From: a virus
Direction: 5' to 3' (one strand)
Length of the DNA stretch: 64,000 nucleotides
Virus record (IMG/VR): IMGVR_UViG_3300033149_002311
Coordinates: 25,265 to 89,264 of that record
Shown here: positions 13,266 to 55,076 of the stretch, in pieces
How positions within the stretch are numbered: the stretch's first letter is position 1
Layout of the letters: each line of letters starts with the position of its first letter
Notes under the pieces: model-generated
Database searches by the model: none
What the model was told of the DNA's origin: nothing
The model's input: only the letters and a program-made list of their open reading frames with translations
Made by a program: the position numbers and the translations under genes

Positions 13266-13278
13266 AGAGGAAGCAAAA

Positions 13279-13716: not shown

Positions 13717-13781
13717 CCCTATCAACCCGTTGCGTGGTGGGGCTGAAGTACGAAAATCGCAACAGAACAGAGGAAAGTTAA

Positions 13782-31789: not shown

Positions 31790-32121
31790 GATACTGCCGG
31801 TGCAGTTGTTAACATAACTAAATCTATTGTAGGGGGTCTTAAAGCGAGTATCGTACCATCTGACATGCGACGCCAGTCTATGCCATCACTATAAACAATA
31901 GATCGATTATCAGCACTAGGGCCGTTAATGTCATCAGTTACGATCGCTAGATGCCATTGGTAGGTAGCTTCATCACCTAGACCAGATATAGTTACAGCAT
32001 CTAATGTTCGAATTTGATCAATCGTCATCTTCTTCGAAATACCACTTTGAGCGACTATAAATGCATCCGTAAGTGCAACTTCGGTAACCGCTGTTAAATT
32101 TGATATTTTTGTTGAAGCCAT
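31786..32121 (-). CDS. Paralogous small tail-associated protein
   Basis: 111 aa with the same plan as its neighbour: STKISNLTAV...TDAFIVAQSG, YSDGIDWRRMSDGT, and a single C-terminal IDLVMLTTAPAVS motif. The two genes overlap (ATGA) and probably arose by duplication. Likely part of a tail tip or fibre. Confidence 0.6.
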   Translation of the reverse strand: MASTKISNLTAVTEVALTDAFIVAQSGISKKMTIDQIRTLDAVTISGLGDEATYQWHLAIVTDDINGPSADNRSIVYSDGIDWRRMSDGTILALRPPTIDLVMLTTAPAVS

Positions 32122-40158: not shown

Positions 40159-40572
40159 TTAAGCCCGAATTAATGTTACATTCGCTGAACTTTCGAATGA
40201 TGCGCTGAAAGTTTGTTCAGCAGTATGTTCACCACCATACTCAAATGACGTAACTTGGAAGAAACCTTGGATGATATCACCATTTTCAAATACCATCTGA
40301 AATTCCTGTGTTAAACCATCCATAGCTAAATCTTCAATATCATTCACAGCAGCATCATCTTGAAATACACCAGAACCACTCATTGATACAGAGCGGATAC
40401 CAGTATTACCCAATAATTGACGCCACGGGGCATCATCACTTGTGGTAATGTCAACAGTTTCGTTATTGATAGTGATAGTTTTAGATCGCAATCCTGCAAT
40501 AGTGGTGAATGTACCCGGTGAGGTACCATCACTGATCTTCAATAAAATATTACGTCCTCTACTGGCTGCCAT
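40159..40572 (-). CDS. Major tail tube protein (TP901-1 type)
   Basis: 137 aa. GRNILLKISDG, LRSKTITINNETVDIT, SGSGVF and FENGDIIQG match the TP901-1/GTA gp9 major tail protein family. It polymerises into the tail tube around the tape measure. A paralogue with an added domain is encoded at 35931-37226. Confidence 0.85.
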   Translation of the reverse strand: MAASRGRNILLKISDGTSPGTFTTIAGLRSKTITINNETVDITTSDDAPWRQLLGNTGIRSVSMSGSGVFQDDAAVNDIEDLAMDGLTQEFQMVFENGDIIQGFFQVTSFEYGGEHTAEQTFSASFESSANVTLIRA

Positions 40573-40586
40573 TTTCAGTTCCTCTA

Positions 40587-41225
40587 TTAATTAAACATAT
40601 AAATATAATCGCTTTTAATGCGATCGACTTTTTCTGCACCAAGCTCTTTTAAAAAATTTAATGGTGCATACATATCATTATTAAATCTTTCCGCCATCCC
40701 TTTCTTTATTTCAACAAAAACTACGGGCTTGTGTCTACATATCGTTTCCTTTGCCCCCTTTAATGCTAAATATTCAGCGCCTTCTAGATCTAATTTCAAT
40801 AATCCCAGTGATGGTAAATCTAAATTATCAATGCTATCCATTGGGATTTCACCATTAGGGTCTTGTTTAACAAATCTAGACCCTGTATTACCCGGTCTAG
40901 TTATATCATCCATTGAAGTTACAAGTCCCTGACGATCACCCAGCGCTTCATTAAATTGTTCTATATTTAGAAATTCTTTTGTATTCCTACATAAACATTC
41001 AAACGTGTCGGGTGCTGGTTCAAATGATAAGACATACTTAAATTGTTTAGCCATCTCAATCGACCATGTTCCCACGTGGGAACCACCATCGATAGCATAT
41101 CCCCATGATGTCACATAAGATAAAGCTATATTAAGACGATCTATCTGAAAACCATTCTCCTTTTCAAATATTTTACCAAAATATTGATCGCTATCGGGCA
41201 ACCATAAACCGCCATGCTGTTTCAT
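40587..41225 (-). CDS. FkbM-family methyltransferase
   Basis: 212 aa from ATG 41225 (AGAGGAAAGT upstream). Motifs AIDGGSHVGTWSIEMA, SFEPAPDTF and LLKLDLEGAEYLALKGA define the FkbM family, which usually O-methylates sugars. It overlaps (ATGA) a glycosyltransferase-like gene and lies between tail genes, so it probably finishes a glycan made by the neighbouring enzymes. Confidence 0.85.
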   Translation of the reverse strand: MKQHGGLWLPDSDQYFGKIFEKENGFQIDRLNIALSYVTSWGYAIDGGSHVGTWSIEMAKQFKYVLSFEPAPDTFECLCRNTKEFLNIEQFNEALGDRQGLVTSMDDITRPGNTGSRFVKQDPNGEIPMDSIDNLDLPSLGLLKLDLEGAEYLALKGAKETICRHKPVVFVEIKKGMAERFNNDMYAPLNFLKELGAEKVDRIKSDYIYMFN

Positions 41226-42022
41226 ACTTTCCTCTGCCAATATTTATGCTCATGCATCGTTGTTAAATCTATATCATTGGATCTACCAGACTTCTTCCTA
41301 TCGCCTTTTAAATGATCCATAACACTACCTAAGATGCTATTAATAAATATATGACCGCGATTTGGTGATGGTATACCATAACCCGGAATATTTTTAGAAA
41401 TTCTAATTTTATCAAATACATATGAATCATGCCACTCGGCAAAATCTATAACCTTACCATTTTTATATACATCAGCAAACTCGGAAATAAAGGGGTGGCA
41501 GGCTGGGTGATTTAAATTATACCCAACAAAACCACATTCGCTATATGATCCGGGGCGATTTAAAAAGCTGAGAGCGACATTATTCGGCAGAAGGCTGTCT
41601 AAAAAATCAATAGAAATTTTAGCAAAAGTTAATACATCAGCGTCTACCCAGAACATCTTCCCGGTTTTATTAACTGATGCTGCATCCTCGATAGCAAATA
41701 CTTTTCGAGCAAACTTTATCATATCAAATCTGTAGTTATATCCTTCCATTATACATTTCTTTTTCCATGGTAGGGGCTGATTAACCAAGGCCCCATTAAA
41801 TAATGGGTTATCTGAATATTCCCCCAAAAAAGTATAGCAGTTCTTGACATATTTTATCAAGTTTACATTATGATGTCGTAACACAATGGGGTCATCAGAC
41901 CCCTCGTGGTATATCATGAGGGATACTTCGGGGGGCCAAAATTGTTTAAAAGTCTCTATGAATCTACGGCCATACTCATGAAACCCCTTTTTACTAAAGC
42001 TTGTTACGACTGTATAATTCAT
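41222..42022 (-). CDS. DxD glycosyltransferase-like protein
   Basis: 266 aa. A GT-A-like order with TVVTSFSKKGFHEYG at the start and a metal-binding type MFWVDADVLTF near residue 128. Likely transfers a sugar from a nucleotide donor. Overlaps both neighbours by ATGA, within a cluster of modification genes. Confidence 0.65.
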   Translation of the reverse strand: MNYTVVTSFSKKGFHEYGRRFIETFKQFWPPEVSLMIYHEGSDDPIVLRHHNVNLIKYVKNCYTFLGEYSDNPLFNGALVNQPLPWKKKCIMEGYNYRFDMIKFARKVFAIEDAASVNKTGKMFWVDADVLTFAKISIDFLDSLLPNNVALSFLNRPGSYSECGFVGYNLNHPACHPFISEFADVYKNGKVIDFAEWHDSYVFDKIRISKNIPGYGIPSPNRGHIFINSILGSVMDHLKGDRKKSGRSNDIDLTTMHEHKYWQRKV

Positions 42023-42885
42023 GACAATTGTTCCTTAAGATATTGCATGGCCTCCCCATTTTTTAACTCTTCTAAAGTCCATTGACAATATGCTAAATCA
42101 TATGCCCATTGTAACCGTTCAGACTCAGAGGGAAAAAACAATTCTTTTTTAAGATTTATTAATTCAGCATTAGCTACTGGATTAGCAATACACTCCCCCA
42201 AACTAATGGCAGGGATACCGAAAAATATCGCATCTAATGAAGCATTACTACCGTGGGTAACAAGGCAATGAACACGATCTAATTCAGCATATATTTTTTT
42301 ATTTGGGCCAGAAAATATTGTCCCTTCAATCGGTGTGGCATTTTTAAACGAGGGTTTGGGCCGATATATAATCGGTTTTTTTGTACATTTGCGAATTCGA
42401 GCAATTATTTTAGCGGCAAATTTATTTGCATCACCCAATCGCCACCAATCACAATATTTTTGTGATTTACCGGCAAACAAAATATATTCACCCTCCGTAT
42501 ATCGTGGGCGCATACTGATACCAAGAGCATCCCAGCGATCAGATGGTCTTGATTTTTTCTGAAAATATGCCATTGGTTGAAAAGCATCTACTGAAAATCT
42601 CCATAATTGTGGCATTGTTTTATGTGCACCTTGTTCTTTACAACGTACATAACCTTTGTCCACATATATGATATGCTTTCCGCAAGCTAAATGATCATTC
42701 ATACAACGTTTACTTTTTCCTTTAACCGAAATTATCATAGCAATATCTGTATCATCCGTGGGGTCTTCATAATCTGCCATACGTCGTATTTCACAATCAA
42801 AACCGTGTATAACTGCACCACTGAGCATGTCATCTGCGATATTTCTTTCATGCGGTTTATCAGAACGGTAAATAACAATTTTCAT
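42019..42885 (-). CDS. Glycosyltransferase-like protein, copy A of three
   Basis: 288 aa. It shares with the next two genes KKPIIYRPKPSF, LVTHGSNASLDAIFFGIPA and LAYCQWTLEELKNG. This resembles the C-terminal domain of GT-B or capsule-type sugar transferases, where a donor phosphate is bound at the T-x-x-S-N loop. Donor and acceptor unknown. Confidence 0.65.
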   Translation of the reverse strand: MKIVIYRSDKPHERNIADDMLSGAVIHGFDCEIRRMADYEDPTDDTDIAMIISVKGKSKRCMNDHLACGKHIIYVDKGYVRCKEQGAHKTMPQLWRFSVDAFQPMAYFQKKSRPSDRWDALGISMRPRYTEGEYILFAGKSQKYCDWWRLGDANKFAAKIIARIRKCTKKPIIYRPKPSFKNATPIEGTIFSGPNKKIYAELDRVHCLVTHGSNASLDAIFFGIPAISLGECIANPVANAELINLKKELFFPSESERLQWAYDLAYCQWTLEELKNGEAMQYLKEQLS

Positions 42886-42886
42886 T

Positions 42887-43738
42887 TTAAAATACCTCCT
42901 TAATTAAATAATCCCACGCCAATCCAGAACGAATTTCAGGCATACTCCATTGCGTGTATGCCACATCATTAAATAATTGTTGGCGTATTTCACTTGATGG
43001 ATATAATGGATGTTCAATATCCTTTAAACCCATCTTAGATAAAGGTTTTGCTAAACCTTCTAATGTGAAAGAAGGGATTCCTTTAACCAAAGCATCGATC
43101 CCAACGTTACTATGGTGTGTTACCACCGCCCATGCACTATCGAGTACCTCTTCTAATTCCTGTTCGGGGGGTGAATATGTTGTCCCATCAATTGGACCAG
43201 CCCCCGGCCAAGAAGGTTTTGGACGATAAATAATTTGTCGAGATGTATATCCTTTTAAAGTTGCGATAGCATTTTGTTCCCATTCTTCGGGGGCAAGGCC
43301 GAATACCCATGCTGCCTTTTCAGATTGCCCACATAATAAAATATGGCCTTCTTCATTTTTCTTCATCGGACAGGGGGTGATATTAAATCGTTGCACACGA
43401 TCGGTTCCATGTTTTATGTTTTGGAAATAATCACTGGCATGAAGAGAATCTACAGCTATTCGGTGGTATCCTTCTAATTGACCTCCTTCCGTTCTTCCCC
43501 AATAACCGAGATCAATGAAAACTGCATGCGCATCTTTACACTTAGAATATGTGCGTTGAATTTTTCTTAATTTATCTTTAAGTCCATAAAATATGGCAAT
43601 ATCAGCTTCTATCCCACCGCCCCACCCATTTACAGATTTTACACGATGACTGATACCGCGATTAATAAGTCCTGCCCGCCATGCTGTACATACCTCATGT
43701 GATCTTTTCCCATCACCTTGATAAATTATCGCATGCAT
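42887..43738 (-). CDS. Glycosyltransferase-like protein, copy B of three
   Basis: 283 aa from ATG 43738 (GGGGGGTTATTGAA upstream). It begins MHAIIYQGDGKRSHEV and has RQIIYRPKPSW, VVTHHSNVGIDALVKGIPSF and VAYTQWSMPEIRSG, the same motifs as its neighbours. Divergence from copies A and C is substantial, so the triplication is not recent. Confidence 0.65.
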   Translation of the reverse strand: MHAIIYQGDGKRSHEVCTAWRAGLINRGISHRVKSVNGWGGGIEADIAIFYGLKDKLRKIQRTYSKCKDAHAVFIDLGYWGRTEGGQLEGYHRIAVDSLHASDYFQNIKHGTDRVQRFNITPCPMKKNEEGHILLCGQSEKAAWVFGLAPEEWEQNAIATLKGYTSRQIIYRPKPSWPGAGPIDGTTYSPPEQELEEVLDSAWAVVTHHSNVGIDALVKGIPSFTLEGLAKPLSKMGLKDIEHPLYPSSEIRQQLFNDVAYTQWSMPEIRSGLAWDYLIKEVF

Positions 43739-43739
43739 T

Positions 43740-44555
43740 TCAATAACCCCCCTTTTGTAATAATTTAAATGGCAACCCCTGTTTAATTTCTTCCTTGGAC
43801 CATTGTAAATAAGCGAGGTTGTAAAAAAATTGTTCGCGTGGTAATTTTTTAGGATCTTCAATATTCAACAAACTTCCCGCGCTTAATTTTTTTGCTATAC
43901 AATTCGGGGCATCTATGAATACAGGAATACCTTTAAGTAATGCTTTATTGGTAATTGAAGGACTGTTCCAAGTTACAATAGCATGTGCATTATCGAGTTG
44001 TTCCATAAGAGGCGTGGTATTGTCAACATTAACATTAGCATAAGAATTTTGCGGAAATTTAGATTTTATTGGTTTAGGCCGATATATGATTGGTCTATCT
44101 GTTATTTTTCTTAGTCGTGTAATTATGTCATCTGGCCAATCACGCGACATAGAATAACGAGTATCTTGATGGCCAAATTGGCCTATAACTAATATTGCTT
44201 CGCCATTCTCTTTCCATGGTTCAATTGCTAAATTAAAATTATCCCAACGATCAGAGGAATGATCAATAACCATCCCCAAACCATTGCCATTATAACCATT
44301 GACATCCACAGCATAATATCGTTGACCATTAATATGGGGGATATAACCATTTTCCATTACAATCCATAATTTATCTTGACTTTTATGGAATTCTCCAGCA
44401 TGATGGTGAGATGAATTACTCCATGGTAGCCATGTAACAAGAACATCTGCGTCAATATACTGAGAAACAAACTCACATCCTGCGTTGCGAAGCCCTTGTT
44501 GAACTTCCCCCCAAGGGTATCCATCGCGATGTTTTATTAAATTACACGCTTTCAT
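43740..44555 (-). CDS. Glycosyltransferase-like protein, copy C of three
   Basis: 271 aa with RPIIYRPKPIK, IVTWNSPSITNKALLKGIPVF and LAYLQWSKEEIKQG. In this copy the T-H-x-S-N loop of A and B reads T-W-N-S-P, which may reflect a different specificity. ATGA overlap with the DUF115-like gene upstream. Confidence 0.65.
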   Translation of the reverse strand: MKACNLIKHRDGYPWGEVQQGLRNAGCEFVSQYIDADVLVTWLPWSNSSHHHAGEFHKSQDKLWIVMENGYIPHINGQRYYAVDVNGYNGNGLGMVIDHSSDRWDNFNLAIEPWKENGEAILVIGQFGHQDTRYSMSRDWPDDIITRLRKITDRPIIYRPKPIKSKFPQNSYANVNVDNTTPLMEQLDNAHAIVTWNSPSITNKALLKGIPVFIDAPNCIAKKLSAGSLLNIEDPKKLPREQFFYNLAYLQWSKEEIKQGLPFKLLQKGGY

Positions 44556-45139
44556 ATTAAATGAGCCCCACCTAAAGGTGTTTTATAAAATTCTTTTAAT
44601 TCTGAATCTTCACACGCATTTAATACCACAATTCCCATACTATCCAGTTTTTCCGCCATCGATTTAAAACACGGTAGCATATTTTTATATTGTTTGGGTC
44701 TACTAGCTACTGGATATCCATCATGCCAATGAGACTCTTTTCCATTGAATTTCATATCGAATCCGAGTAAAACTATTATTCTAGCCCCGAGATGAACCGC
44801 TAAATTCATAGCTGCATAACCAGAATTATTACCATGTTTTAATTGCATATGACCTAAATCAATTCCTTTACACCCAGTTAATTTATAATTTTGTATATCA
44901 GGGTGGTCAACATTTTTATCACCAGTTATTTTAACACCACTGTGTGCTATTAAACCATTTTTATGCCAATTAAAAAATCTCTTGTCTGTGAAATATACTA
45001 CTTCAGCCCGTGGTATAACTTCATATGATCTATTAACGGCGATTATTCTTTTATTCTTTAAAAGGTCCCAATCATAACCTTTTAAAGACGGGCCACCACC
45101 AGCTATATAAATTACCCTTTCATCGTTGCGAAGTTCCAT
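44552..45139 (-). CDS. DUF115-like glycan synthesis protein
   Basis: 195 aa. YIAGGGPSLKGYDWDLLKNK, AVNRSYEVIP and NSGYAAMNLAVHLGARIIVL match the DUF115/MptE-like fold, related to sialyltransferase-like and flagellin glycosylation proteins. The same fold forms the C-terminal half of the protein at 50966-52450. It starts 28 bases inside the upstream tail gene after GGAG. Confidence 0.7.
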   Translation of the reverse strand: MELRNDERVIYIAGGGPSLKGYDWDLLKNKRIIAVNRSYEVIPRAEVVYFTDKRFFNWHKNGLIAHSGVKITGDKNVDHPDIQNYKLTGCKGIDLGHMQLKHGNNSGYAAMNLAVHLGARIIVLLGFDMKFNGKESHWHDGYPVASRPKQYKNMLPCFKSMAEKLDSMGIVVLNACEDSELKEFYKTPLGGAHLI

Positions 45140-45495
45140 GATAACTCCGGTCTGTTGTCTTCTCGGTCATAACCCAATGGGATAGGGCCGGATTGTAAAG
45201 GGAAAACATATATATAGCCTGATATAGTAGAATCATTTAAACTATCGAACACCTCCTGTATTTTGATTCTAGCAGCCTCATAACCAAATTTACTGCCGCG
45301 GACCCTAACCTGAAAAGTTGGGTATTCATATTTAGTCCCAGGGGTTTGATCAGGGGCGTCACCCCCAGTCTCAAATAATGCGATCACGTTATCGGGAGTG
45401 GGTGGCATATATGATTTAGCAAGTACCCAGTCGGTTACCCCACCAACTACGCCATCAGACGTTAATTCAGCACCAATATCATCTAATATGCTCAT
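45112..45495 (-). CDS. Tail terminator / minor capsid-like protein
   Basis: 127 aa. PDNVIALFETGGDAPDQTPG and YEYPTFQVRVRG followed by AARIKIQEVFDSLN match the small protein family often annotated as minor capsid protein, equivalent to tail terminators. Fits its place between the HK97 gp10-like gene and the tail genes. Confidence 0.8.
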   Translation of the reverse strand: MSILDDIGAELTSDGVVGGVTDWVLAKSYMPPTPDNVIALFETGGDAPDQTPGTKYEYPTFQVRVRGSKFGYEAARIKIQEVFDSLNDSTISGYIYVFPLQSGPIPLGYDREDNRPELSWNFATMKG

Positions 45496-45878
45496 CTTTT
45501 AAGACTCTTTGTGGCTATCTTAATATCCTTTGCAATTCGTTTGCTCATCCCAGATATAGCCTTTCTAGCTGGTATTTCTAAAAATTTAGCCATACCATTG
45601 GTGTGCCAAGCATCAATTATTTCATGGACAGCAGCCGCATAATTCACATTCCCACCACCAAATTTAATAGAGATAACATTACCAATCGGCCCGGTAACTT
45701 TACCGGAATCCCTTAATGCACCAGTGGCTACAGGGACCAATTCTTTGCTCTGTATTAAAATACCATTCGCCTCCTCTTTTAAAGATTTAGTAAGAGCCGC
45801 CTCAGCTATTTCACCATATCTTTTCATCTGGGATTGAATTTTATTAATCCCTTTAATATCCATAGATATGGTTGTCAT
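45492..45878 (-). CDS. HK97 gp10-like head-tail joining protein
   Basis: 128 aa. VPVATGALRDSGKV and NVNYAAAVHE plus the final AKFLEIPARK are typical of the HK97 gp10/neck family. It likely forms the head-tail interface. Overlaps both neighbours by ATGA. Confidence 0.85.
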   Translation of the reverse strand: MTTISMDIKGINKIQSQMKRYGEIAEAALTKSLKEEANGILIQSKELVPVATGALRDSGKVTGPIGNVISIKFGGGNVNYAAAVHEIIDAWHTNGMAKFLEIPARKAISGMSKRIAKDIKIATKSLKR

Positions 45879-46204
45879 ATTACCTCCTGACCGAAAAATA
45901 TTTTAACATGATGATCACCGCCCTCATCAGTAAATTTTTCAACATTAAATATCGGGGGCGCAGTACCATCAGGTAAAGTTACACTATCCTCAGGACCCAT
46001 AGATGGTATACCACCCACCCAACATTGAAGCCTAGATACAAGTTCAGAACCATCAGAACCACGGATTATCGTATCCTTATGAACAATTCTGGCAGAGTAG
46101 GGAGTAGGATCACCATAAGTAGGTACATTATATTCATCCCGACTAATTAATGGCCTGTGTACAACAGTAGCTGGCATCATATCTAGAAAATCGTTAATAG
46201 CCAT
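45875..46204 (-). CDS. Head closure/connector-like protein
   Basis: 109 aa from ATG 46204, just after the upstream stop. DEYNVPTYGDPTPYSARIVHK and QCWVGGIP resemble head-tail connector (gp16/SPP1 stopper type) proteins. The order terminator, gp10, connector supports this. Confidence 0.65.
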   Translation of the reverse strand: MAINDFLDMMPATVVHRPLISRDEYNVPTYGDPTPYSARIVHKDTIIRGSDGSELVSRLQCWVGGIPSMGPEDSVTLPDGTAPPIFNVEKFTDEGGDHHVKIFFGQEVI

Positions 46205-46206
46205 TT

Positions 46207-46569
46207 TTAAATACTCGGTACTGTAGTTAATGAATCCCGGATAAACCATTCAAAAAATTCAGAGCCATACCGGTTTGTACCATCCCCAACCCACATTATA
46301 CCCCGGTACATACCGACTGTCAATAGATCATTTTCATGCCACACATATTGGGTTATACCACTAGAAGGTGTTGGTACAGATGATACTCCTTGACCAAGAT
46401 TTCCAGGGTCAACGCCATCATCAATTCTAATTATCTCAAATTGAGCAGTGAACCCCGATAAATCTAAAATAGCCCCAGCATCATTTTTAAAACTTATTTG
46501 CAAAGCTTGCGGGATTTCACCTTTAAGATATGCGCCAATCATTTGTTGTGTAGTGTATATAGCAGCCAT
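46207..46569 (-). CDS. Hypothetical beta-rich structural protein
   Basis: 120 aa. LQISFKNDAGAILDLSGFTA and YRGIMWVGDGTNRY recall the N-terminal beta domain of BppU-type baseplate proteins. It lies in the neck gene cluster. Function inferred only from place. Confidence 0.55.
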   Translation of the reverse strand: MAAIYTTQQMIGAYLKGEIPQALQISFKNDAGAILDLSGFTAQFEIIRIDDGVDPGNLGQGVSSVPTPSSGITQYVWHENDLLTVGMYRGIMWVGDGTNRYGSEFFEWFIRDSLTTVPSI

Positions 46570-47693
46570 TATGATATTCCTGTATTTTTCGTACGATCTA
46601 ACCGCGTAGTTATAAACCCGGTGCCCGGTTCTGTAGACGTTAAACTTTTAGCTGGGTATGCTACTGTAACAGCTGAAACTACCGGCGCAGTGGTACTTAA
46701 TATTAAATCAACTACTGGTATAACTAAATTTATTGTAGTAGTTTCACCAATTATTGGAACAGATGTTGATAATAATAAATCAACTTGTGGGATTTCGATA
46801 TTAATATTAACCGGTACTGAAACAATAGGTGCAGTTGTTGAAATATTAAGGGCTGCAACTGGGATGATAACATCTATATTGATACCGATGCCAACTATCG
46901 GAGCAGATGTTGATAAAACTAAATCAACCGTTGGGGTCTCAATATCAATAACAGCGCTAACACCAACTGTCGGAGCGGATGTTGATAAAATCAAATCAAC
47001 TGCTGGGATATCAATACTAACGTGGGCCGTAGTAAATACAACTGGGGCCGCTGTTGATAACACTAAATCAACTGTGGGGGTCTCAATACCTGTACCCAAT
47101 AATACTACAGGTGCGGTAGTTGGTAATAATAAGTTAACTACCGGGACTTCAATATTTCTATTTTCAGTGGTTAGTGCTGCTGGTGCAACCGTTGATAAAA
47201 CTAAATTTGTAGCTGGTATTATAATATCAATACCAGCACTAATTTCCACCGATGGAGCAGTTGTTAAAAATGTTAAATCGGTAACAGGTACTTCAATGTC
47301 TACATGATCAGTAATGACTACCGTCGGGGCTGTTGTAGAAAGCGTCAAACTAGCAACAGGTACTTCAATGTCTACATGATCAGTAATGACTACCGTCGGG
47401 GCTGTTGTTAATAAGGAGAGGTTCACTACTGGTATATTAATACCTATCCCAACTGAAGGAGCAACAGTTGTTAAAGTAAGATTTACAGCAGGAACCTCAA
47501 AACTAATACCAACCGATGTCACATCTACGGTTGGTGCTGTTGTTGATAAAATTAAATTAGAACTTGGTACTTCTATAGATACACCAGCAGGTGATGCCTC
47601 ATTAAAATACCCACCCCCAGGAATTAGGTATTCATTACCATCATCAGCAACTTCATAGTAGCCGACACTAGGGATTAGGATTACATCGGCCAT
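46569..47693 (-). CDS. Thirteen-repeat beta protein
   Basis: 374 aa. After a ~45-residue head (ILIPSVGYYEVADDGNEYLI) the rest consists of 13 copies of a module ending L-x-LSTTAP-x-V, spaced 20-27 residues. Each copy reads as a beta hairpin with a turn at the AP. The same module occurs in the small tail proteins at 31397 and 31786. A long fibre or spiral is likely. Proline/threonine-rich repeats would also suit glycosylation. Confidence 0.7.
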   Translation of the reverse strand: MADVILIPSVGYYEVADDGNEYLIPGGGYFNEASPAGVSIEVPSSNLILSTTAPTVDVTSVGISFEVPAVNLTLTTVAPSVGIGINIPVVNLSLLTTAPTVVITDHVDIEVPVASLTLSTTAPTVVITDHVDIEVPVTDLTFLTTAPSVEISAGIDIIIPATNLVLSTVAPAALTTENRNIEVPVVNLLLPTTAPVVLLGTGIETPTVDLVLSTAAPVVFTTAHVSIDIPAVDLILSTSAPTVGVSAVIDIETPTVDLVLSTSAPIVGIGINIDVIIPVAALNISTTAPIVSVPVNINIEIPQVDLLLSTSVPIIGETTTINLVIPVVDLILSTTAPVVSAVTVAYPAKSLTSTEPGTGFITTRLDRTKNTGIS

Positions 47694-48974
47694 TTATGTC
47701 ACCACAAAGGCAGGGTCAGCCCACAATGTATAACTAGCTTTTGTTATATTGATCCAAACTTCGGCCACGGCATTATCACCCGTTTCGGAAGTTGTGACGG
47801 CCATTTCCTGCTCGTTATTGTCTGTAAGGTCTTCTGTCCATACTTCTGAACTGGTTATGATATCGGACGGTGAAAGTACGTCACCTAGTGAATTCTCTAC
47901 CCATCCCTTGTTAGTCGTATCATCTTGATATACCAAATCAATAAATACTTCATCATCTGTAAGATTAGCTGCAGAGTCATGTAATATTTGCACTGTTACT
48001 GTTTTAGCTGTTGACGCATCCAAACGAACCATGCCCAACTTAACTCTGAATGGCTCAATGAAAGAGGCATTTGCAGTGGTGATTATCTTTTTAGAAAATG
48101 AAGTTGTACCATCACTTGCATTTAAATAGGTAGTAGTGTCAACCTCTGCCTTCCCGGAATAAGACATAAGAATATCTTCAAGATTATTATCACCACTGCT
48201 GCACCCTGATAAGATTATTTCGTCCAATAAGCTAAGAGCAGCGCTCGACTCATTGGTGTATGTACCTAAATCAACATTACTAAGATATAGATGAGCATCT
48301 CCTGCTGCATTCTCCAAAAGATTAGTACAATCTGGTAATGATCCTCCGCGCATAGTTACTGTTTGAGAAGCCGATCCCGCGCGAAAAATGCTTGTTACTG
48401 TTCCTCCTGCTGTTATATTTGTCCCAATCAACTCCAAATGACACCTAATAGAGGTTGTTTGTGCTCTGAAAAAACTAGTAAGATTATTGATAGAATGAAT
48501 AGTACAATAATGAAGCTTCGTTAATTTGTCAGCAGCAGAAGCTAACCAACCAAACTGGGCACCACCACTTACCGTTCCGATATGAAGTAAGCATTTATAG
48601 AAATTAGAATCATTACCCCACATATCATCAGCAGCTTTAAACGTCATAGAATGACAAATCGCATTGGTAATCGATAAATCAGCGCCAGCCGTTGTGCATT
48701 CTTCTATCGCACCGAAACTTTCAACATCACAATTTGCATCGTCGGCGCCGACTATTCTGGCTAATGTGATTAATGCCTGACTTGTGCCGTAATCGTGGTC
48801 GTGAACATCTGAGCAAATAATAAAATCACCAGAGCCAGCTCCATCTGTTATTGCTAACGTAATAGTTGCATAAACGTTGCCAACACCTAACGATGAATAA
48901 GCACCTGTTTGTTTTGTGGTGCCACCGCCTGCAATGCGTGTGCCATAACTTGATTTAACGTAGAAATATGCCAT
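47694..48974 (-). CDS. Beta-helix-like structural protein
   Basis: 426 aa, rich in short strands with Gly, Thr, Ser and Asn, starting AYFYVKSSYGTRIAGGGTTK. The pattern TLAITDGAGSGDFIICSD, then repeated L-x-x-C-T-I turns resembles right-handed beta-helix virion proteins. Likely a fibre or head decoration. Confidence 0.55.
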   Translation of the reverse strand: MAYFYVKSSYGTRIAGGGTTKQTGAYSSLGVGNVYATITLAITDGAGSGDFIICSDVHDHDYGTSQALITLARIVGADDANCDVESFGAIEECTTAGADLSITNAICHSMTFKAADDMWGNDSNFYKCLLHIGTVSGGAQFGWLASAADKLTKLHYCTIHSINNLTSFFRAQTTSIRCHLELIGTNITAGGTVTSIFRAGSASQTVTMRGGSLPDCTNLLENAAGDAHLYLSNVDLGTYTNESSAALSLLDEIILSGCSSGDNNLEDILMSYSGKAEVDTTTYLNASDGTTSFSKKIITTANASFIEPFRVKLGMVRLDASTAKTVTVQILHDSAANLTDDEVFIDLVYQDDTTNKGWVENSLGDVLSPSDIITSSEVWTEDLTDNNEQEMAVTTSETGDNAVAEVWINITKASYTLWADPAFVVT

Positions 48975-49501
48975 TACAAGAATGCCCCATTAATTTCAGT
49001 CCACCGATGTATAACCTCCAAATCTCGATACCACTGATTGGAGATTGCATCAACATAGCGATCATTAACTAAACCATACTCCTGGCTTGTTATACCAAGA
49101 TACGTAGCCCGTTGATTATTATTGGCTCCTTCGGTCTGAACGCGATCATAAACAGGCTGACAACTTAATAACGAATCTGTGTCAAGCAACATTGATGCGC
49201 CTAAAAAACGTCGATCAAAATCTATCTGTGTTTGGTGATCTGGCACCTTATCGGGATTACCATTCATAATGGCTACATTTATTTGCTGCTGCACTTCTTC
49301 CCATGCCAAATCGTTTTCTAGTACAGAGATAATCCCTAAACGTTCTGCTGAATATTCAACTTCAGTCCAGGCACCATTAACTTTTCTAGCACCACGAATA
49401 TGCACCTTCCCTAAATGATCAGTAAATTCATGGCGTATACTTCGCAAGCCACTTACTTGCGTGTCGCTATCTGCGATTGTTTGATTTGAAACTATGCTCA
49501 T
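48974..49501 (-). CDS. Hypothetical virion-associated protein
   Basis: 175 aa from ATG 49501 (ATGA overlap with the sigma factor gene). HEFTDHLGKVHIRGARKVNG, then a helical C-terminus (RYVDAISNQWYRDLEVIHRW). Encoded directly upstream of the beta-helix-like protein. No family was recognised. Confidence 0.55.
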   Translation of the reverse strand: MSIVSNQTIADSDTQVSGLRSIRHEFTDHLGKVHIRGARKVNGAWTEVEYSAERLGIISVLENDLAWEEVQQQINVAIMNGNPDKVPDHQTQIDFDRRFLGASMLLDTDSLLSCQPVYDRVQTEGANNNQRATYLGITSQEYGLVNDRYVDAISNQWYRDLEVIHRWTEINGAFL

Positions 49502-49965
49502 CTGCACGCCCCCATTACCCGTCTACAAATCCTGTTAAGTCTGGATTTTATTGTTCCTAGCGCGACCCCGTATTTCTTCGCGAGTTCAGGCCCACTATAT
49601 CTAAGCACATATGACTGGAACAAAAGCCTGCGATGTTTGTGTGTGATATTTTCCGTAAGCATAAAAAACCAGATTAGATTGAATTGTTGCTCCTTCTCAA
49701 ACGGTTCGTCAGTAATCCCCACAACTTCCATTCTTGACTGTAGTTTTCTAGTTCTATCTATCTCTGCATTCTTTAATGTAACCCGGATGTAGGCACTAAC
49801 ATTTTTCGGCTGTTTATCTTCCCTCGAAACGTCCCACAAAGCGATCAACGCTTCCTGCTCTGCCTCTCGATCCGTGTAGCCCCAACTTCTTAGTACCTGT
49901 ATACCGATTGCCCGGATATTGGGTGTTGCTTTCAGAAGCTGGTTAAATGTCAGATTTGTACACAA
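49498..49965 (-). CDS. ECF-like RNA polymerase sigma factor
   Basis: 155 aa. Region 2-like GYTDREAEQEALIALWDVSR and AYIRVTLKNAEIDRTRK are followed by a region 4 helix-turn-helix, SGPELAKKYGVALGTIKSRL. This is the minimal two-domain layout of extracytoplasmic-type sigma factors. It may redirect host RNA polymerase to phage late promoters. Being inside the late operon suggests positive feedback. The promoters I recognise elsewhere are of host sigma70 type. Confidence 0.75.
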   Translation of the reverse strand: MCTNLTFNQLLKATPNIRAIGIQVLRSWGYTDREAEQEALIALWDVSREDKQPKNVSAYIRVTLKNAEIDRTRKLQSRMEVVGITDEPFEKEQQFNLIWFFMLTENITHKHRRLLFQSYVLRYSGPELAKKYGVALGTIKSRLNRICRRVMGACR

Positions 49966-50483
49966 ATCGCCACCAGATGATTACCAAGTTCATCCTGGTA
50001 CGGAGTCATTCCGTCAGCATCAGTTTTCCATAAATAACGGTATTGCAGTGTTCTGGTCGTCGGTATCGCTAAAGCCCCACACGGTTCGCCAATTGTGGCG
50101 TATAGTGTTTTGTGTTCGATCAAATTGCCAGAAATAAACTTATAAGATGGCCTTTTAACCGCCGTAGGGTGGTGTTTGTGTACCACCCACTCAACAAGAT
50201 CTGGTGGGGGTAGTTGGATCACATTGGTGTCATTAATAATTGCGAGTTCTTCTTCATTTAAGATTCGCTGACTAGCCCCAAATATAAGCCCAAGCTCCCC
50301 GAGGGTAGCGGTTCCCTGCGGCCAACTGTCGTTGAAAGTCTTTAAGTTGAAAGCGCGATAGCCCATATTACAAACTACTGTGTCTACTACACGCACACAT
50401 TCGCCGACCGGAATAGCGGCAACAGCATTACTGCTCCCACCACCAATTAGGATCAATAGAAAAACCCAAAAATAGTTTTTCAT
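49950..50483 (-). CDS. Exported protein with signal peptide
   Basis: 177 aa from ATG 50483 (AAGGAG seven bases upstream). A Sec signal peptide (MKNYFWVFLLILIGGGSSNA) with probable cleavage after VAA near residue 23. The mature domain contains several cysteines. Periplasmic role unknown, perhaps envelope modification during infection. Overlaps the sigma factor start. Confidence 0.6.
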   Translation of the reverse strand: MKNYFWVFLLILIGGGSSNAVAAIPVGECVRVVDTVVCNMGYRAFNLKTFNDSWPQGTATLGELGLIFGASQRILNEEELAIINDTNVIQLPPPDLVEWVVHKHHPTAVKRPSYKFISGNLIEHKTLYATIGEPCGALAIPTTRTLQYRYLWKTDADGMTPYQDELGNHLVAICVQI

Positions 50484-50508
50484 CACATCACTCCTTATTA
50501 TATTACAG

Positions 50509-50964
50509 TTAAGTTAACTCAAAGATACCAGTTGCACTTGGCGTCACTGTTAATGTATTGCCGTCAGTGACAGTAAACTGACTAGTTGAAAGTTGTGAAC
50601 TTGCAACTAATCTCTGAACACCGGCAGATGCACCCGTGGTTAAGTCATATAATACTGCAAACTTGGCATTAACAATACTACCACCTGAAGCGGACCAAAT
50701 AGTTGCAGTGGCATCAAACCGCATCACACCCGCGGATGCACCCTCTGCCCAAGTTATACCCAACAATGACTTACCACCCGCTGCATAGCCATTTGCTGCA
50801 GAAACTTCATTCGTCACCTGACTGCGTGTAGATAAAGTTGCTATTGCTGCATTTGATGCACTAGTGAATAAAGCCAACATAAAAGTATCACCATCAAGAT
50901 CGATAGTGTTATCGGCCATATACTCCCGAAATTTATTGTAAATAATCCACGCTTGTGCTGCCAT
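50509..50964 (-). CDS. Virion protein of a common phage family
   Basis: 151 aa. KFREYMADNTIDLDGDTFML and TSASNAAIATLSTRSQV are typical of a small conserved phage structural family, often encoded near the head genes and unnamed. Beta-rich. Likely a decoration or fibre component. Confidence 0.65.
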   Translation of the reverse strand: MAAQAWIIYNKFREYMADNTIDLDGDTFMLALFTSASNAAIATLSTRSQVTNEVSAANGYAAGGKSLLGITWAEGASAGVMRFDATATIWSASGGSIVNAKFAVLYDLTTGASAGVQRLVASSQLSTSQFTVTDGNTLTVTPSATGIFELT

Positions 50965-50965
50965 T

Positions 50966-52450
50966 TTAATTACCTCCTATGGTTAATTTTTCGCTAAGTT
51001 TAGCACCTTCTTTCATCATATGTGCGATTAATCCATTACCATGAACATTTAATTCAAATTTGTCACCTAAAGATATGATAAACCGTTGAAAATCTTCAAA
51101 TTGACTGGCCATCCATGCAGCGCACTTAAACGTTTTTCCCATACATACTAAATCATGTACTTCACATTCATCATTTTCTATTTGGTTGTATGCATGGTGT
51201 TCACCCCCCATGTAACAAGAATCAAACCCATATACTTCCATTTTTTTGAAACCCAGCATTCTCATCATCCAAATAGTTCTAAGAACTACTGTTGATCCAC
51301 CAACTACGAAATAATACTTACCAAAATAATGATTATCTAATATTTCTTTCTCCCCCATCTCATTTAAAACATGGAAAATTTGAACGTTCTGACCTTCCAG
51401 TGCATCAAATACATCAGGGTGGCATTGAGATGCCATTAAATATTTACATGTATCGATTGGGTTTTGCACAAATCTAACATTATGCTGCCTAGCGTCTACC
51501 ATTACATGCACAGACGGCTTAAACCCTCTTTCTACCAACCAATCATGTGTATTATTAACTGCCACCAACATATAACCCTCTTCCTCAACTTGTCGACGTA
51601 ATTCAGGTAGGGTGTCATTAAGAGATGGGCCGCCAGCAACAATTGCGATCTTTTGTTTATCATTGATTTCATAGGGTTTTACCTGAGGTAGTTGACGTTT
51701 AACATTAACACGGACATTTTCTAAAATATCCGCAATATTGGCGTTCATACCCATATTAATCTTAAGACGCTTTTTCCCCCATAACTCGGGCTGGATCACA
51801 GAATTAACCTTTAGATCGTCCCAACTTAATCCATCAGTTTGTTCAACAACTATCTTAAATGAACTGATATCACCCCTGATCAATGCATTTGCATCAACCT
51901 CGATAACATTAGCACTTGATTTCTTCAATGCTTCCATCCGGTTTAAATAACAATCTACCCATACTGCCCAGAATTCCCGATCGCGCGGGCCATATTTGGG
52001 GGTATTCATAAAGGGGGTTCGACAACAGGAATCGATCAACTCTTCGCGATCCCGGCGCACCACTACCCACGTAGCATCTGGGTATGAATGATGCCAATCA
52101 CGCCACATCAGGAGCAGTTTAGCATCCTTATACATCCACGGAGGCCCCTTAGGTATCTCGAAGTAACCATCGTCTACTAGTAGTCTATCAACAAGAGATT
52201 TGAGGTTAACGCCCGATGAGATATCATGGGGGGGCAGGGGGTGTATACCAAGATGATCCGCACCCAACATAGATAATGCAGTCTTCATAAGACCATCACG
52301 CAAATAACGATTTTCATAAAATCCATTCAGGTTTTCAGAACTGCCGGGTTCAGTTGTACCAGACCAAGCGCCACACTCATGTAAAAGATGGGCAACCATG
52401 GAGGTACCAGAACGGGCCACACCCGTCACAAATATTGGTTGTGGGGTCAT
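50966..52450 (-). CDS. Sulfotransferase-DUF115 fusion
   Basis: 494 aa in two domains. The N-terminal ~215 residues start FVTGVARSGTSMVAHLLHE, the P-loop-like PAPS-binding motif of sulfotransferases, followed by WVVVRRDREELIDS. The C-terminal part (about 260-494) has IAIVAGGPSLNDTLPELRR, FKPSVHVMVDAR and LGFKKMEVYGFDSCY, the DUF115 glycan-related fold. A fusion of sulfate transfer and sugar-related domains points to modified glycans. Confidence 0.75.
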   Translation of the reverse strand: MTPQPIFVTGVARSGTSMVAHLLHECGAWSGTTEPGSSENLNGFYENRYLRDGLMKTALSMLGADHLGIHPLPPHDISSGVNLKSLVDRLLVDDGYFEIPKGPPWMYKDAKLLLMWRDWHHSYPDATWVVVRRDREELIDSCCRTPFMNTPKYGPRDREFWAVWVDCYLNRMEALKKSSANVIEVDANALIRGDISSFKIVVEQTDGLSWDDLKVNSVIQPELWGKKRLKINMGMNANIADILENVRVNVKRQLPQVKPYEINDKQKIAIVAGGPSLNDTLPELRRQVEEEGYMLVAVNNTHDWLVERGFKPSVHVMVDARQHNVRFVQNPIDTCKYLMASQCHPDVFDALEGQNVQIFHVLNEMGEKEILDNHYFGKYYFVVGGSTVVLRTIWMMRMLGFKKMEVYGFDSCYMGGEHHAYNQIENDECEVHDLVCMGKTFKCAAWMASQFEDFQRFIISLGDKFELNVHGNGLIAHMMKEGAKLSEKLTIGGN

Positions 52451-53055
52451 TAGTTCACCTCCTTTTCTACATAATACATGCCATTCGAGATTAAATCCCG
52501 TGCGTCGACGACATTACCTAATTCAGCTAGTTTATCACGCCACCACAAAAATGGTTTTACTGTTAAATGTAAAGGTGAACCAATAATTTGACCAAAACTG
52601 TCCGGTACCAAACAGATATAGAAAAAAGCACCTCTTTTACAGGTGTTAATAATATTTTGGAGGGTAGCCATTACATATTCAGTTGGGATATGCTCCATCA
52701 CATCACAACAATAAGCATAATCATAATCATGGGCGTGGCTCACCATGGCTGGTGAATCCCATAAATTGATTTCAAAAAAATTGAGATTTACCATATTAGA
52801 TATGCTATTCCGAACCTCATCATCCATCGATTGATTGGTAATATCCAACATCGTAACGCCGTAATCCTCTTTTGCCAATGCTAAACTAGCACGTGCCGTG
52901 CCGCTACCACAATCTACTATGCTACTAAATTCAAACGGTTTAACAATCTTTTTAAAAGCATTTAGACTATTTTCACCGGGGGAATGAATTCTATACCCAT
53001 CCGTGTCCCAACATTTTTCATACTTCTTTTTCTCTTCTTGATGTGTATTACCCAT
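52450..53055 (-). CDS. Class I SAM methyltransferase
   Basis: 201 aa. Motif I SSIVDCGSGTARASLALA, then VTMLDITNQ and CDVMEHIP (motif IV-like). UbiG/Methyltransf_11-type fold. Directly follows (one-base overlap) the sulfotransferase fusion in reading order, so it probably methylates the same small-molecule or glycan substrate. Confidence 0.75.
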   Translation of the reverse strand: MGNTHQEEKKKYEKCWDTDGYRIHSPGENSLNAFKKIVKPFEFSSIVDCGSGTARASLALAKEDYGVTMLDITNQSMDDEVRNSISNMVNLNFFEINLWDSPAMVSHAHDYDYAYCCDVMEHIPTEYVMATLQNIINTCKRGAFFYICLVPDSFGQIIGSPLHLTVKPFLWWRDKLAELGNVVDARDLISNGMYYVEKEVN

Positions 53056-53125
53056 TTTTGCGCTCCTTAATTCGCTAATTACCTAACAAGTAAAATTTAT
53101 CATACCTATTTTTGTCAATCCCCAT

Positions 53126-53689
53126 TTAAACGGTCGGCCTAGGTGTATGCTGATACCAATGCAGAGTGATGGACGCCCGCATGGTTTGCCCACCAATATT
53201 AGTTATTCGTATTAAATGTGTACCAGGACCGGGTACGAATTCACCGAAACCACCTACCACCCCGCCTGCTGCATTACCACCAGAACCACCCGGAATATAT
53301 TCTGCAGGGTATGGGTCCCCCAAATCGGTAATAACCGGGTCGTGGTGTAGTGCTATATTGGATTCAACCATAGAATAGTAAGCCCTATTCCTTATAATAG
53401 CCAACGAGCCCACATTACTCGCTGTAACATTAGTAAAGAATTGTAATTCTGAATCCCTACCAACACTAACATTGTACAATAGATGTGGTGAATTATCGGG
53501 GGATATAGTGATAAGTAAATCAGCATATCCATCAGCCGCTATTATATCCCCCCATAAATGCCCCCCGATAAATGTCGTACCATCATGTGTTCTTAAATGG
53601 AAAACATCTATAACGGGTAAAGGCCAATCTGAACCGACTGGCCTTTTAAATTTAAGGTCTTGATCTTCGTAATAAATTGGTGCGGCCAT
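53126..53689 (-). CDS. Hypothetical virion protein with glycine-rich end
   Basis: 187 aa from ATG 53689 (TTG at 53698 also possible). Beta-rich; residues about 140-165 are glycine/proline-rich (GGSGGNAAGGVVGGFGEF). It is encoded between the radical SAM gene and the methyltransferase, so it could be a substrate of the modification enzymes. Confidence 0.55.
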   Translation of the reverse strand: MAAPIYYEDQDLKFKRPVGSDWPLPVIDVFHLRTHDGTTFIGGHLWGDIIAADGYADLLITISPDNSPHLLYNVSVGRDSELQFFTNVTASNVGSLAIIRNRAYYSMVESNIALHHDPVITDLGDPYPAEYIPGGSGGNAAGGVVGGFGEFVPGPGTHLIRITNIGGQTMRASITLHWYQHTPRPTV

Positions 53690-53713
53690 ATTATTCAACC
53701 ACCATGGTGTTCA

Positions 53714-54649
53714 TCAGTATGCTACACACTTCTCACAAACCGTCCCGGTTAAGTCTTTCTTTAAATGAGCCCTTCGAACCTCCTGAAATTTCTCTGAATT
53801 CCAAGCATCCATGAAAGATTCTTTTTTGAGGTCCCCAACTACAAAACGTCCATCCGCATCAAAACAACATAAGGAAAGTCCCCCGTCGGCCCTTACATGA
53901 CCTTCTGTGAACGCGCTCCAACAAGGAAGAGGTGGCCTTAATTGCCCCAACCGCCCTTGATTACCGGCAGTAGGACGATAACCTAGTTCTGCCTCTCTTT
54001 GAGTGGCTACAGAACCCATTGAATAAAGCGGTAGCCAATAATGTTCATCAATATAGGGTCTAACTTTCTCATCCAGCAAAGCCTCCATTTTTCCCTGCTG
54101 CTCCCCATCATATTTAATAGAAGAAGCATAAAGACCACATTTATGATTACCCCTGATCTCAAATGCAGCTTTCATATTAGCAAAAGCATTACCATAGAGT
54201 TTTGGCTTAACACCCATAACTTCCTTAAATTGGGCATCATCAGAGGCATTGATAGACCATTTCAGTGAATCAAGCCCTGCCTCCATGCATTTTAATACCA
54301 TATCAGGGAAAGCAATAGAGGCATTAGATGTTAGGAAAACATAGGGAATTTTAGCAACCTGTTTAGTAAAACGAATAGCCTCTACTAGAATATCGGGGGA
54401 CATGAATGATTCCCCCAAGTAGAAAACGCCTATCTCTTGTACCCCGGCATCCGCCATTTCCATGACGATCCGTTTATATAAATTGATATCCATATCTGTA
54501 TTTAATTGTTTATCCCTCGTCCTTAAAGCACAAAATCCGCACCGGTAATTACACTTATTAGTAAGTTCAATTTTTACTGACTTTGGGGCTGGTAGGATAG
54601 AGCGAAAATCTTCTACTTTGGTAATTGAATCAATCCTGTCAGTAATCAT
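53714..54649 (-). CDS. Radical SAM protein with SPASM-type C-terminus
   Basis: 311 aa. ELTNKCNYRCGFCALRT holds the CxxxCxxC iron-sulfur motif. FYLGESFMS and LTSNASI follow in typical radical SAM order. The C-terminus has CWSAFTEGHVRADGGLSLCC and a closing CEKC, as in SPASM or twitch domains that hold extra clusters. SPASM enzymes modify peptides or proteins, or act on sugars. Located among head genes. Start at 54649 chosen for GAGAG upstream. Confidence 0.85.
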   Translation of the reverse strand: MITDRIDSITKVEDFRSILPAPKSVKIELTNKCNYRCGFCALRTRDKQLNTDMDINLYKRIVMEMADAGVQEIGVFYLGESFMSPDILVEAIRFTKQVAKIPYVFLTSNASIAFPDMVLKCMEAGLDSLKWSINASDDAQFKEVMGVKPKLYGNAFANMKAAFEIRGNHKCGLYASSIKYDGEQQGKMEALLDEKVRPYIDEHYWLPLYSMGSVATQREAELGYRPTAGNQGRLGQLRPPLPCWSAFTEGHVRADGGLSLCCFDADGRFVVGDLKKESFMDAWNSEKFQEVRRAHLKKDLTGTVCEKCVAY

Positions 54650-55076
54650 TATTATCACTCTCTACATTATTAGATGGGTTATCATTCATTCCCTTAGTGA
54701 ACATAGGATCAGCACGATCTGAATTATCCCTCACAGAGTCCTTATCTGATACACTTATACCACCAGCATAAGCAATTGGAGCATATAAATTAGCATCAGA
54801 CTCCTCAAGAAATGTAGCCAAATCAACATAATGCTTATAGATTTGGCTGTATGATATCTTGAGGTCACCAACTGTTTTATCGACTTTTCTGGCATATTTA
54901 CCAGCTAGAGTTCTAACGATTCGAATTGCTGCTAAACGATTATTTGCTTCATTAGCGATAGCATATGCAATTTCCTCATCTTGAACTATTTTATCAGCAT
55001 TATCGGTATCACCAATTAAAAATCTAACTTCATCCCTATTATTAGCGCTAGGGTCGCCGGTGTATGTCCAAGTCAT
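54639..55076 (-). CDS. Head-tail adaptor protein
   Basis: 145 aa. NRDEVRFLIGDTDNADKIVQ and EEIAYAIANEAN match the gp6-like head-tail adaptor family that docks below the portal. The C-terminus is acidic and disordered. Located shortly downstream of the major capsid gene, as expected. Confidence 0.8.
   Translation of the reverse strand: MTWTYTGDPSANNRDEVRFLIGDTDNADKIVQDEEIAYAIANEANNRLAAIRIVRTLAGKYARKVDKTVGDLKISYSQIYKHYVDLATFLEESDANLYAPIAYAGGISVSDKDSVRDNSDRADPMFTKGMNDNPSNNVESDNNDY

What the first reader, a model, noticed from the sequence alone, without database searches (positions are those of the whole stretch)
40587..54649. Glycan or protein modification cassette interleaved with virion genes
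Among the head and tail genes lie an FkbM methyltransferase, a DxD glycosyltransferase, three paralogous glycosyltransferase-like proteins, a DUF115-like protein, a sulfotransferase-DUF115 fusion, a class I methyltransferase and a radical SAM/SPASM enzyme. They are expressed late with the capsid and tail, next to Thr/Pro-rich repeat proteins. This suggests assembly of a methylated, sulfated glycan on virion proteins, or installation of another modification. I know of no described phage system with this enzyme set.
Basis: inference. Interest (0 to 1): 0.75.

Follow-up and report, generated by a model that had tools for sequence, protein, structure and literature searches.

The report
Phage cassette for decorating virus particles
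An uncultured tailed phage carries, inside its particle-building genes, a set of sugar-transferring, methylating and sulfating enzymes that recurs in many other phages and probably coats its own particles with an acidic sugar chain, although no chemical proof exists yet.

Summary
In detail: all nine enzyme genes exist at the stated places, on the virion-gene strand, in two blocks tightly packed with head, neck and tail genes. The cassette is not unique. Its core is a DUF115-type transferase (D115), then up to four paralogous transferases (P1-P4), GT-A-type transferases and an FkbM methyltransferase. That core recurs in order in many uncultivated phages and, after the tail genes, in Caulobacter jumbo phages. 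A model of P2 (pLDDT 94) matches CMP-Kdo transferases (KpsC, KrkA, WbbB) best among solved structures. D115 and the sulfotransferase-fused DUF115 domain also point weakly to sialic acid, Kdo and pseudaminic acid transferases. The sulfotransferase recurs in 14 of 37 dereplicated DUF115 loci, often near the major capsid gene. D115 directly follows the neck gene in all close relatives whose neck gene was recognised. Best explanation: late, phage-encoded glycosylation of virion proteins, with D115 as the likely attaching enzyme and the others extending, methylating and sulfating. Acceptor and sugar are not shown. P2 and P3 lack the Kdo-transferase nucleophile, and the radical SAM enzyme's role is open. 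Virion glycosylation is known in mycobacteriophages, with unrelated enzymes; this is a new variant.

The parts
40587..41240 (-). FkbM-family methyltransferase (last gene of block A)
   Evidence: PF05050 E 1.2e-12; phrog_8156 methyltransferase; same slot before the major tail protein in relatives
41222..42022 (-). GT-A-type glycosyltransferase candidate with invariant FWVDADV, SECGF, EWHDS and MDHLKG motifs
   Evidence: No Pfam match; invariant D127/D129 in 5 relatives; homologues in MW202713 and pelagiphage Mosig; its AF2 model failed
42019..42885 (-). P3: paralogous GT-B transferase, slot 3 (DKGYxR; lacks the KpsC nucleophile Asp)
42887..43738 (-). P2: paralogous GT-B transferase, slot 2 (DLGYWG; GQSEKAAW in place of the KpsC nucleophile motif)
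   Evidence: AF2 pLDDT 93.8, pTM 0.88; best PDB matches KrkA/KpsC/WbbB Kdo transferases, E 1.2e-7; motif comparison; start codon 43738 has a GGGGGG ribosome-binding site
43740..44555 (-). P1: paralogous GT-B transferase, slot 1 (VMENGY; GQFGHQD)
   Evidence: Homologues in Caulobacter jumbo phages, pelagiphage Mosig, MW202713; motifs
44552..45139 (-). D115: DUF115 / alpha-2,3-sialyltransferase-like transferase; first gene of block A
   Evidence: phrog_4603 5e-37; WaaZ KdoIII transferase 1.4e-5, far below that model's cut-off; CstII E 0.011; directly follows the neck gene in relatives
50966..52450 (-). Sulfotransferase (Sulfotransfer_3) fused to a DUF115 (Maf/PseD-type) domain
   Evidence: PF13469 9.4e-8, PF01973 1.2e-18; FlagModPseD 9.4e-6, below cut-off; PAPS motifs ARSGTS and VRRxxxxIxxSC kept in most of the aligned homologues
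52450..53055 (-). Class I methyltransferase, overlaps the start of the sulfotransferase gene by 1 nt
   Evidence: PF08242/PF13649 over cut-off; 78% identical in sister phage L008, also adjacent to the sulfotransferase there
53126..53698 (-). Protein of unknown function between the radical SAM and methyltransferase genes
   Evidence: No Pfam or PHROG match
53714..54658 (-). Radical SAM/SPASM enzyme (CX3CX2C plus auxiliary-cluster cysteines); accessory
   Evidence: PF04055 and PF13186 over cut-off; 8 cysteines invariant in 42 sequences; absent from sister phage L008
45112..46249 (-). Three head-tail connector (neck) genes directly upstream of block A; the last overlaps D115 by 28 nt
   Evidence: phrog_2595, phrog_5, phrog_3881 connectors; overlaps
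40159..40572 (-). Major tail protein, 14 nt downstream of block A
   Evidence: phrog_1407 1.2e-27
46569..47693 (-). Ser/Thr/Pro repeat protein with 13 LSTTAPxV-type repeats; candidate acceptor (inference)
   Evidence: copy number varies in relatives (31 in L008, at least 10 in L021/L022)
56427..57377 (-). Major capsid protein (context)
   Evidence: phrog_1005 5e-80

Best explanation
This is a phage-encoded virion glycosylation cassette, transcribed with head, neck and tail genes and therefore acting while particles are assembled. Proposed order: (1) D115, the constant first gene, attaches the first sugar to a virion protein, as Maf/DUF115 enzymes do on flagellin (inferred). (2) P1, P2 and P3 extend the chain, one step each, probably with CMP-activated 3-deoxy-ulosonates such as Kdo from the host (fold shown for P2; donor and activity inferred; P2 and P3 lack the canonical nucleophile and may use another chemistry or donor). 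(3) The GT-A enzyme adds another residue. (4) The FkbM and class I methyltransferases and the sulfotransferase-DUF115 fusion cap the chain with methyl and sulfate groups (motifs shown, substrates inferred). (5) The radical SAM enzyme is an accessory of unknown substrate. Candidate acceptors are neck and tail proteins and the TTAP repeat protein. The result would be an acidic coat that alters adsorption, stability or recognition of the particle.
For: Gene overlap with neck genes and 14 nt to the major tail gene. D115 directly follows the neck gene in every locus where that gene was recognised and is at least 43% identical, and block A ends at the major tail protein in most loci whose contig reaches that far. 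Conserved D115-P1-P2(-P3-P4)-GT-MT order in window-clade contigs; D115-P-P-GT order in Caulobacter phages CcrSC and CcrColossus, after the tail genes. P2 fold: the first 16 and most of the first 30 PDB matches are Kdo transferases, probability 1.00. P4 of relatives keeps the nucleophile motif QVPxDGSV (KpsC DQTFNDMSV) and RPHP. In other phages D115 lies just after major head protein genes, and the neighbouring cassettes hold methyltransferases, NDP-sugar epimerases/dehydratases, GT2, hexapeptide transferases and RmlD. Sulfotransferase in 14 of 37 dereplicated D115 loci, fused to DUF115 here. Precedent: mycobacteriophage capsid and tail tube glycosylation (PMC12363180).
Against: No chemistry: no mass data, no acceptor identified. 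About 11 clusters of T4-like phages carry a solitary D115 on the opposite strand, next to replication genes where tested, so DUF115 alone does not imply virion modification. P2 and P3 lack the nucleophile of the Kdo transferases they resemble. Radical SAM homologues in Betaproteobacteria lie in non-glycan contexts. The cassette between tail and lysis genes in Caulobacter phages would also suit late modification of the host envelope.
Confidence: 0.6

Rival explanations
1. The enzymes modify the host cell envelope or flagellum late in infection (blocking superinfection, or freeing progeny from binding to debris) rather than the particle.
For: The nearest characterised relatives of these folds act on capsule, LPS and flagellin (KpsC, WbbB, WaaZ, PseD). 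In Caulobacter phages the cassette lies between tail and lysis genes.
Against: The block is locked between neck and major tail genes in the window clade and near MCP genes elsewhere, with overlapping reading frames; envelope-modifying phage genes known to me (gtr-type) are mostly prophage-expressed and carry membrane partners, none of which was noticed among the ORFs here.
Confidence: 0.2
2. The cassette hypermodifies phage DNA bases with glycans.
For: Phage glycosyltransferases are well known to modify DNA (cited in PMC12619734); relatives in some T4-like phages lie near replication genes.
Against: This phage already has a separate early base-substitution system (PurZ and DpoZ over cut-off); the thymidylate synthase matches ordinary ThyA models; the cassette is embedded in virion genes, not replication genes.
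Confidence: 0.07
3. An accumulated set of unrelated cargo genes without a joint pathway.
For: Content varies strongly between relatives; the radical SAM gene is absent from sister phage L008 and its bacterial homologues have no glycan context.
Against: Conserved order and four P groups; sulfotransferase-DUF115 fusion plus separate co-occurrence elsewhere; around the radical SAM gene in other phages cassette genes make up 27% of ORFs within 2 kb against 0% beyond 6 kb (Fisher p 8e-14 for <2 kb against >4 kb).
Confidence: 0.08

Closest known systems
Mycobacteriophage virion glycosylation (Che8, Corndog, Myrna; Freeman et al. 2023, read through PMC12363180 and PMC12619734)
   Same: Phage-encoded glycosyltransferases; there the capsid and tail tube proteins are glycosylated
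   Different: Che8 gp108-110 are not homologous to any cassette enzyme and lie at the genome end, not among virion genes; no sulfotransferase or DUF115 reported in the passages read
KpsC / KrkA / WbbB retaining Kdo transferases (CMP-Kdo; families GT107/GT99 from my knowledge)
   Same: Fold of P2; acid motif (E/D-x-G-Y/F) and S-type motif; nucleophile and HP motif in the P4 paralogues of relatives
   Different: P2 and P3 lack the nucleophile Asp, P1 has it shifted by one, HP is KP; sequence similarity is marginal (E 0.05)
DUF115/Maf and PseD flagellin transferases, CstII and WaaZ
   Same: D115 and the fusion's C-terminal domain match weakly to moderately
   Different: Encoded in a phage late operon; donor and acceptor unknown
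Cassettes of Caulobacter phages CcrSC gp169-174 and CcrColossus gp126-131
   Same: D115-P-P-GT-methyltransferase order, after tail genes
   Different: No sulfotransferase or radical SAM seen in the stretch read; carry a GT9-type gene and sit before the lysis genes; function unstudied as far as found
Pelagibacter phage Mosig cluster
   Same: FkbM, GT-A, two P-family genes and a sulfotransferase
   Different: Near ribonucleotide reductase and primase genes, not virion genes

Membership tests
Phage virion-protein glycosylation system | Glycosyltransferases encoded by the phage | tested here: met
   D115 matches phrog_4603 and the P2 fold matches glycosyltransferases
Phage virion-protein glycosylation system | Structural protein carries a glycan dependent on these genes | not testable with these tools
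   Needs mass spectrometry of virions
Mycobacteriophage (Che8-type) virion glycosylation enzymes | Homology to the mycobacteriophage enzymes | tested here: not met
   Che8 gp108-110 show no significant similarity
KpsC/WbbB-type Kdo transferases | Two-domain GT-B fold of that type | tested here: met
   Foldseek E 1.2e-7, probability 1.00, TM about 0.5
KpsC/WbbB-type Kdo transferases | Nucleophile Asp (KpsC D160 position) | tested here: not met
   Ala in P2, Tyr in P3, shifted by one in P1; kept only in P4 of relatives
KpsC/WbbB-type Kdo transferases | His-Pro motif | tested here: not met
   RPKP in P1-P3; RPHP in P4 and in CcrSC gp170
KpsC/WbbB-type Kdo transferases | CMP-Kdo as donor | not testable with these tools
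   No assay; no CMP-sugar synthetase in the record, so the donor would come from the host
DUF115 (PF01973, MptE-like/Maf) | Profile match over the curated cut-off | tested here: inconclusive
   Over cut-off for the fusion domain (67.9 against 34.6 bits), below it for D115 (28.3 bits)
PAPS-dependent sulfotransferase (PF13469) | 5'-PSB loop and 3'-PB motif | tested here: met
   ARSGTS and RRDREELIDSC present and kept in most of the 19 aligned sequences; PF13469 33 against 27 bits
FkbM methyltransferase (PF05050) | Profile match over cut-off | tested here: met
   48.8 against 22.7 bits
Radical SAM/SPASM | CX3CX2C plus auxiliary-cluster cysteines | tested here: met
   C36, C40, C43, C246, C264, C265, C308, C311 invariant in 42 sequences
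Radical SAM/SPASM with a known substrate | Match to a named NCBIfam equivalog over its cut-off | tested here: not met
   All 25 matches shown lie far below their cut-offs

The most novel reading that the evidence does not exclude
A widespread, so far undescribed class of phage virion decoration: a DUF115 transferase primes a virion protein and a virus-specific family of Kdo-transferase-like enzymes (P1-P4) builds an ulosonate-based, methylated and sulfated polymer from the host CMP-sugar pool, giving phages an acidic glycan coat and explaining phage sulfotransferases and the DUF115 genes of P1 (pmgO) and D3-like phages.
Probability: 0.25. Interest if true: 0.8.

Novelty: new variant of a known kind. 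Interest (0 to 1): 0.6.

Why it matters
Virion glycosylation was shown only recently, in mycobacteriophages. [quoted passage not shown] Because homologous cassettes exist in isolated Caulobacter phages, the question is directly testable on a bench. A particle coat would affect adsorption, stability and immune recognition of phages.

Tried and rejected
An alignment of all P-family sequences was too divergent for a collection scan; split into slots it worked. P2-type proteins: 48 viral contigs but none confirmed in bacterial genomes with the patterns used. Structure prediction of the GT-A candidate failed (pLDDT 42) and was not used. A background sample through thymidylate synthase returned only two loci; distance bins around the radical SAM gene and a sample drawn through the neck gene were used instead. 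Phage sulfotransferase homologues by tblastn in isolated phages: none with two queries. Idea that the bacterial home of the radical SAM enzyme is a glycan cluster: rejected. Idea that P1-P3 are plain Kdo transferases: not filed, because the nucleophile and HP motif fail. DNA modification: disfavoured by context and by the separate Z-genome genes. Literature searches for DUF115, sulfotransferase and virion glycosylation in phages found no functional description of this enzyme set. The original mycobacteriophage paper is not held, so it is cited through other papers.
Full report
WHAT IS THERE. The window lies in an 89,264-base IMG/VR virus record. The late genes run on the minus strand from terminase and portal (61073-62560, 59682-61076) through the capsid (56427-57377) to neck, major tail and tape measure. 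Two enzyme blocks interrupt them. Block A (40587-45139) lies between the last head-tail connector gene and the major tail protein: D115, P1, P2, P3, GT-A, FkbM methyltransferase. Block B (50966-54658) lies between head genes: radical SAM/SPASM, an unknown protein, a class I methyltransferase, and a sulfotransferase-DUF115 fusion. Gaps inside block A and at its upstream border range from -28 to 1 nt, and the major tail gene starts 14 nt after it. Separate transcription from the virion genes is therefore unlikely, although a perfect sigma-70-like sequence at 46323-46295 (mostly kept in sister phages) could add an internal start.

THE P FAMILY. P1, P2 and P3 have no Pfam match over cut-off. They are paralogues. 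Together with relatives they form four groups, P1 to P4, each with its own motif set. The model of P2 (pLDDT 93.8, pTM 0.88) finds the retaining Kdo transferases KrkA, KpsC and WbbB as its best PDB neighbours (the first 16 and most of the first 30, E from 1.2e-7); among viral models it finds CcrColossus and several 'capsule polysaccharide biosynthesis' proteins of Tetraselmis virus 1. The KpsC nucleophile sits in DQTFNDMSV (the 8fuw D160N chain reads NN there). P4 proteins of relatives keep this as QVPxDGSV together with RPHP. P1 has GQFGHQD, P2 GQSEKAA and P3 GKSQKYC, all with RPKP. So the fold is shown for P2, and the catalytic mechanism of P1-P3 is open.

OTHER ENZYMES. D115 matches phrog_4603 (alpha-2,3-sialyltransferase) at 5e-37, WaaZ (KdoIII transferase) at 1.4e-5 and CstII at 0.011. 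The C-terminal domain of the fusion matches MptE-like at 1.2e-18 and PseD at 9e-6. The NCBIfam matches are far below their model cut-offs. Three separate transferase types thus all point towards 3-deoxy-ulosonate donors; each pointer is weak alone. The record has no CMP-sugar synthetase family and no NDP-sugar epimerase (the record may be incomplete), so donors would come from the host. The sulfotransferase keeps both PAPS motifs.

DISTRIBUTION. A scan with D115 found 259 viral contigs; 80 were kept, of which 73 carried a recognised D115 in 52 clusters at 90% identity. Among 37 clusters with at least 5 kb downstream, the sulfotransferase family is present in 14, P family in 8, GT-A in 5, FkbM in 5 and radical SAM in 3. 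Of 20 genes just upstream of D115 that I chose for testing because of their size and position, 18 are major head or virion structural proteins and one is a portal; this choice was not random. Downstream genes in such loci include methyltransferases, epimerases/dehydratases, GT2, hexapeptide transferases, GT-D and RmlD, that is, glycan biosynthesis. About 11 clusters (L033-L048, L051) show a solitary D115 on the opposite strand; in the three loci tested a polymerase clamp loader is the likely neighbour. A sample drawn through the neck gene instead of the cassette showed D115 directly after that gene in every locus with a recognised neck gene at 43% identity or more (one such locus, L298, gave no call), and in none of the four recognised distant ones. 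The rest of the cassette varies from about two to about nine genes and ends at the major tail protein in most loci whose contig reaches it. A constant first gene and a variable remainder fit a priming enzyme followed by exchangeable extension and capping enzymes (inference).

ISOLATES. Homologous cassettes lie after the tail genes in CcrSC (gp169-174) and CcrColossus (gp126-131). Mosig has FkbM, GT-A, two P genes and a sulfotransferase, but not beside virion genes. DUF115 alone lies between the major capsid and head-tail connector genes in the D3-like Pseudomonas phage PMG1 and is pmgO of phage P1; pmgO, pmgP and pmgQ scored nonessential there (PMC10695390).

RADICAL SAM. 65 viral contigs carry relatives, 59 of them close, in 41 clusters, with eight invariant cysteines. 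In 23 of 34 loci of at least 6 kb a cassette glycosyl- or sulfotransferase is nearby, and cassette genes fall from 27% of ORFs within 2 kb to 0% beyond 6 kb. The last figure is partly limited by locus ends. Yet 83 bacterial loci, mostly Betaproteobacteria, encode relatives, the best 60-67% identical, and the tested neighbours are respiratory, regulatory and other core genes. The enzyme is absent from sister phage L008, and tblastn found only weak relatives in isolated phages. Its role is left open.

MECHANISM AND NOVELTY. The best reading is late glycosylation of virion proteins. Position, operon overlap and recurrence are shown; acceptor, donor and linkage are inferred. Virion glycosylation by phage enzymes is published for mycobacteriophages (read through PMC12363180, and PMC12619734), but Che8 gp108-110 are unrelated to this cassette. 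No functional description of the present enzyme set was found. I therefore call it a new variant of a known kind.

Noticed in passing
window 25688-26737 (+) and 22860-24692 (+): PurZ (NF038379, 357 bits against cut-off 300) and DpoZ (NF038380, 837 against 500): the phage very probably carries a 2-aminoadenine (Z) genome. An HD hydrolase at 28928-29515 and a MazG-like ORF at 27035-27400 may be the DatZ and MazZ partners, but were not confirmed by NCBIfam.
   Followed up: partly
window 46323-46295 (-): Perfect sigma-70-like promoter (TTGACA-17-TATAAT) inside a gene upstream of the neck genes; the -10 box is kept in sister phages, the -35 box differs by one base in one of them.
   Followed up: partly
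window 31397-31789 and 31786-32121 (-): Two adjacent small proteins end in the same TTAPxV-type unit that is repeated 13 times in 46569-47693; possibly a shared C-terminal tag.
   Followed up: no
window 15238-16815 (+); record bases 12970-14184 (+): By eye a TROVE/Ro60-like protein and an RtcB-like RNA ligase: possible RNA repair genes of the phage. Not run against a library.
   Followed up: no
L033-L048, L051: T4-like phages with a solitary DUF115 gene on the opposite strand, next to a polymerase clamp loader gene where tested; function unclear.
   Followed up: no
L211-L290: A strongly conserved radical SAM/SPASM family, mostly in Betaproteobacteria (about 60-67% identical to the phage protein), without a named NCBIfam equivalog, near respiratory and regulatory genes in the loci tested.
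   Followed up: partly
window 40159-40572 and 35931-37226 (-): Two proteins match the same major tail protein family (phrog_1407) on either side of the tape measure gene; the second is a long fusion.
   Followed up: no
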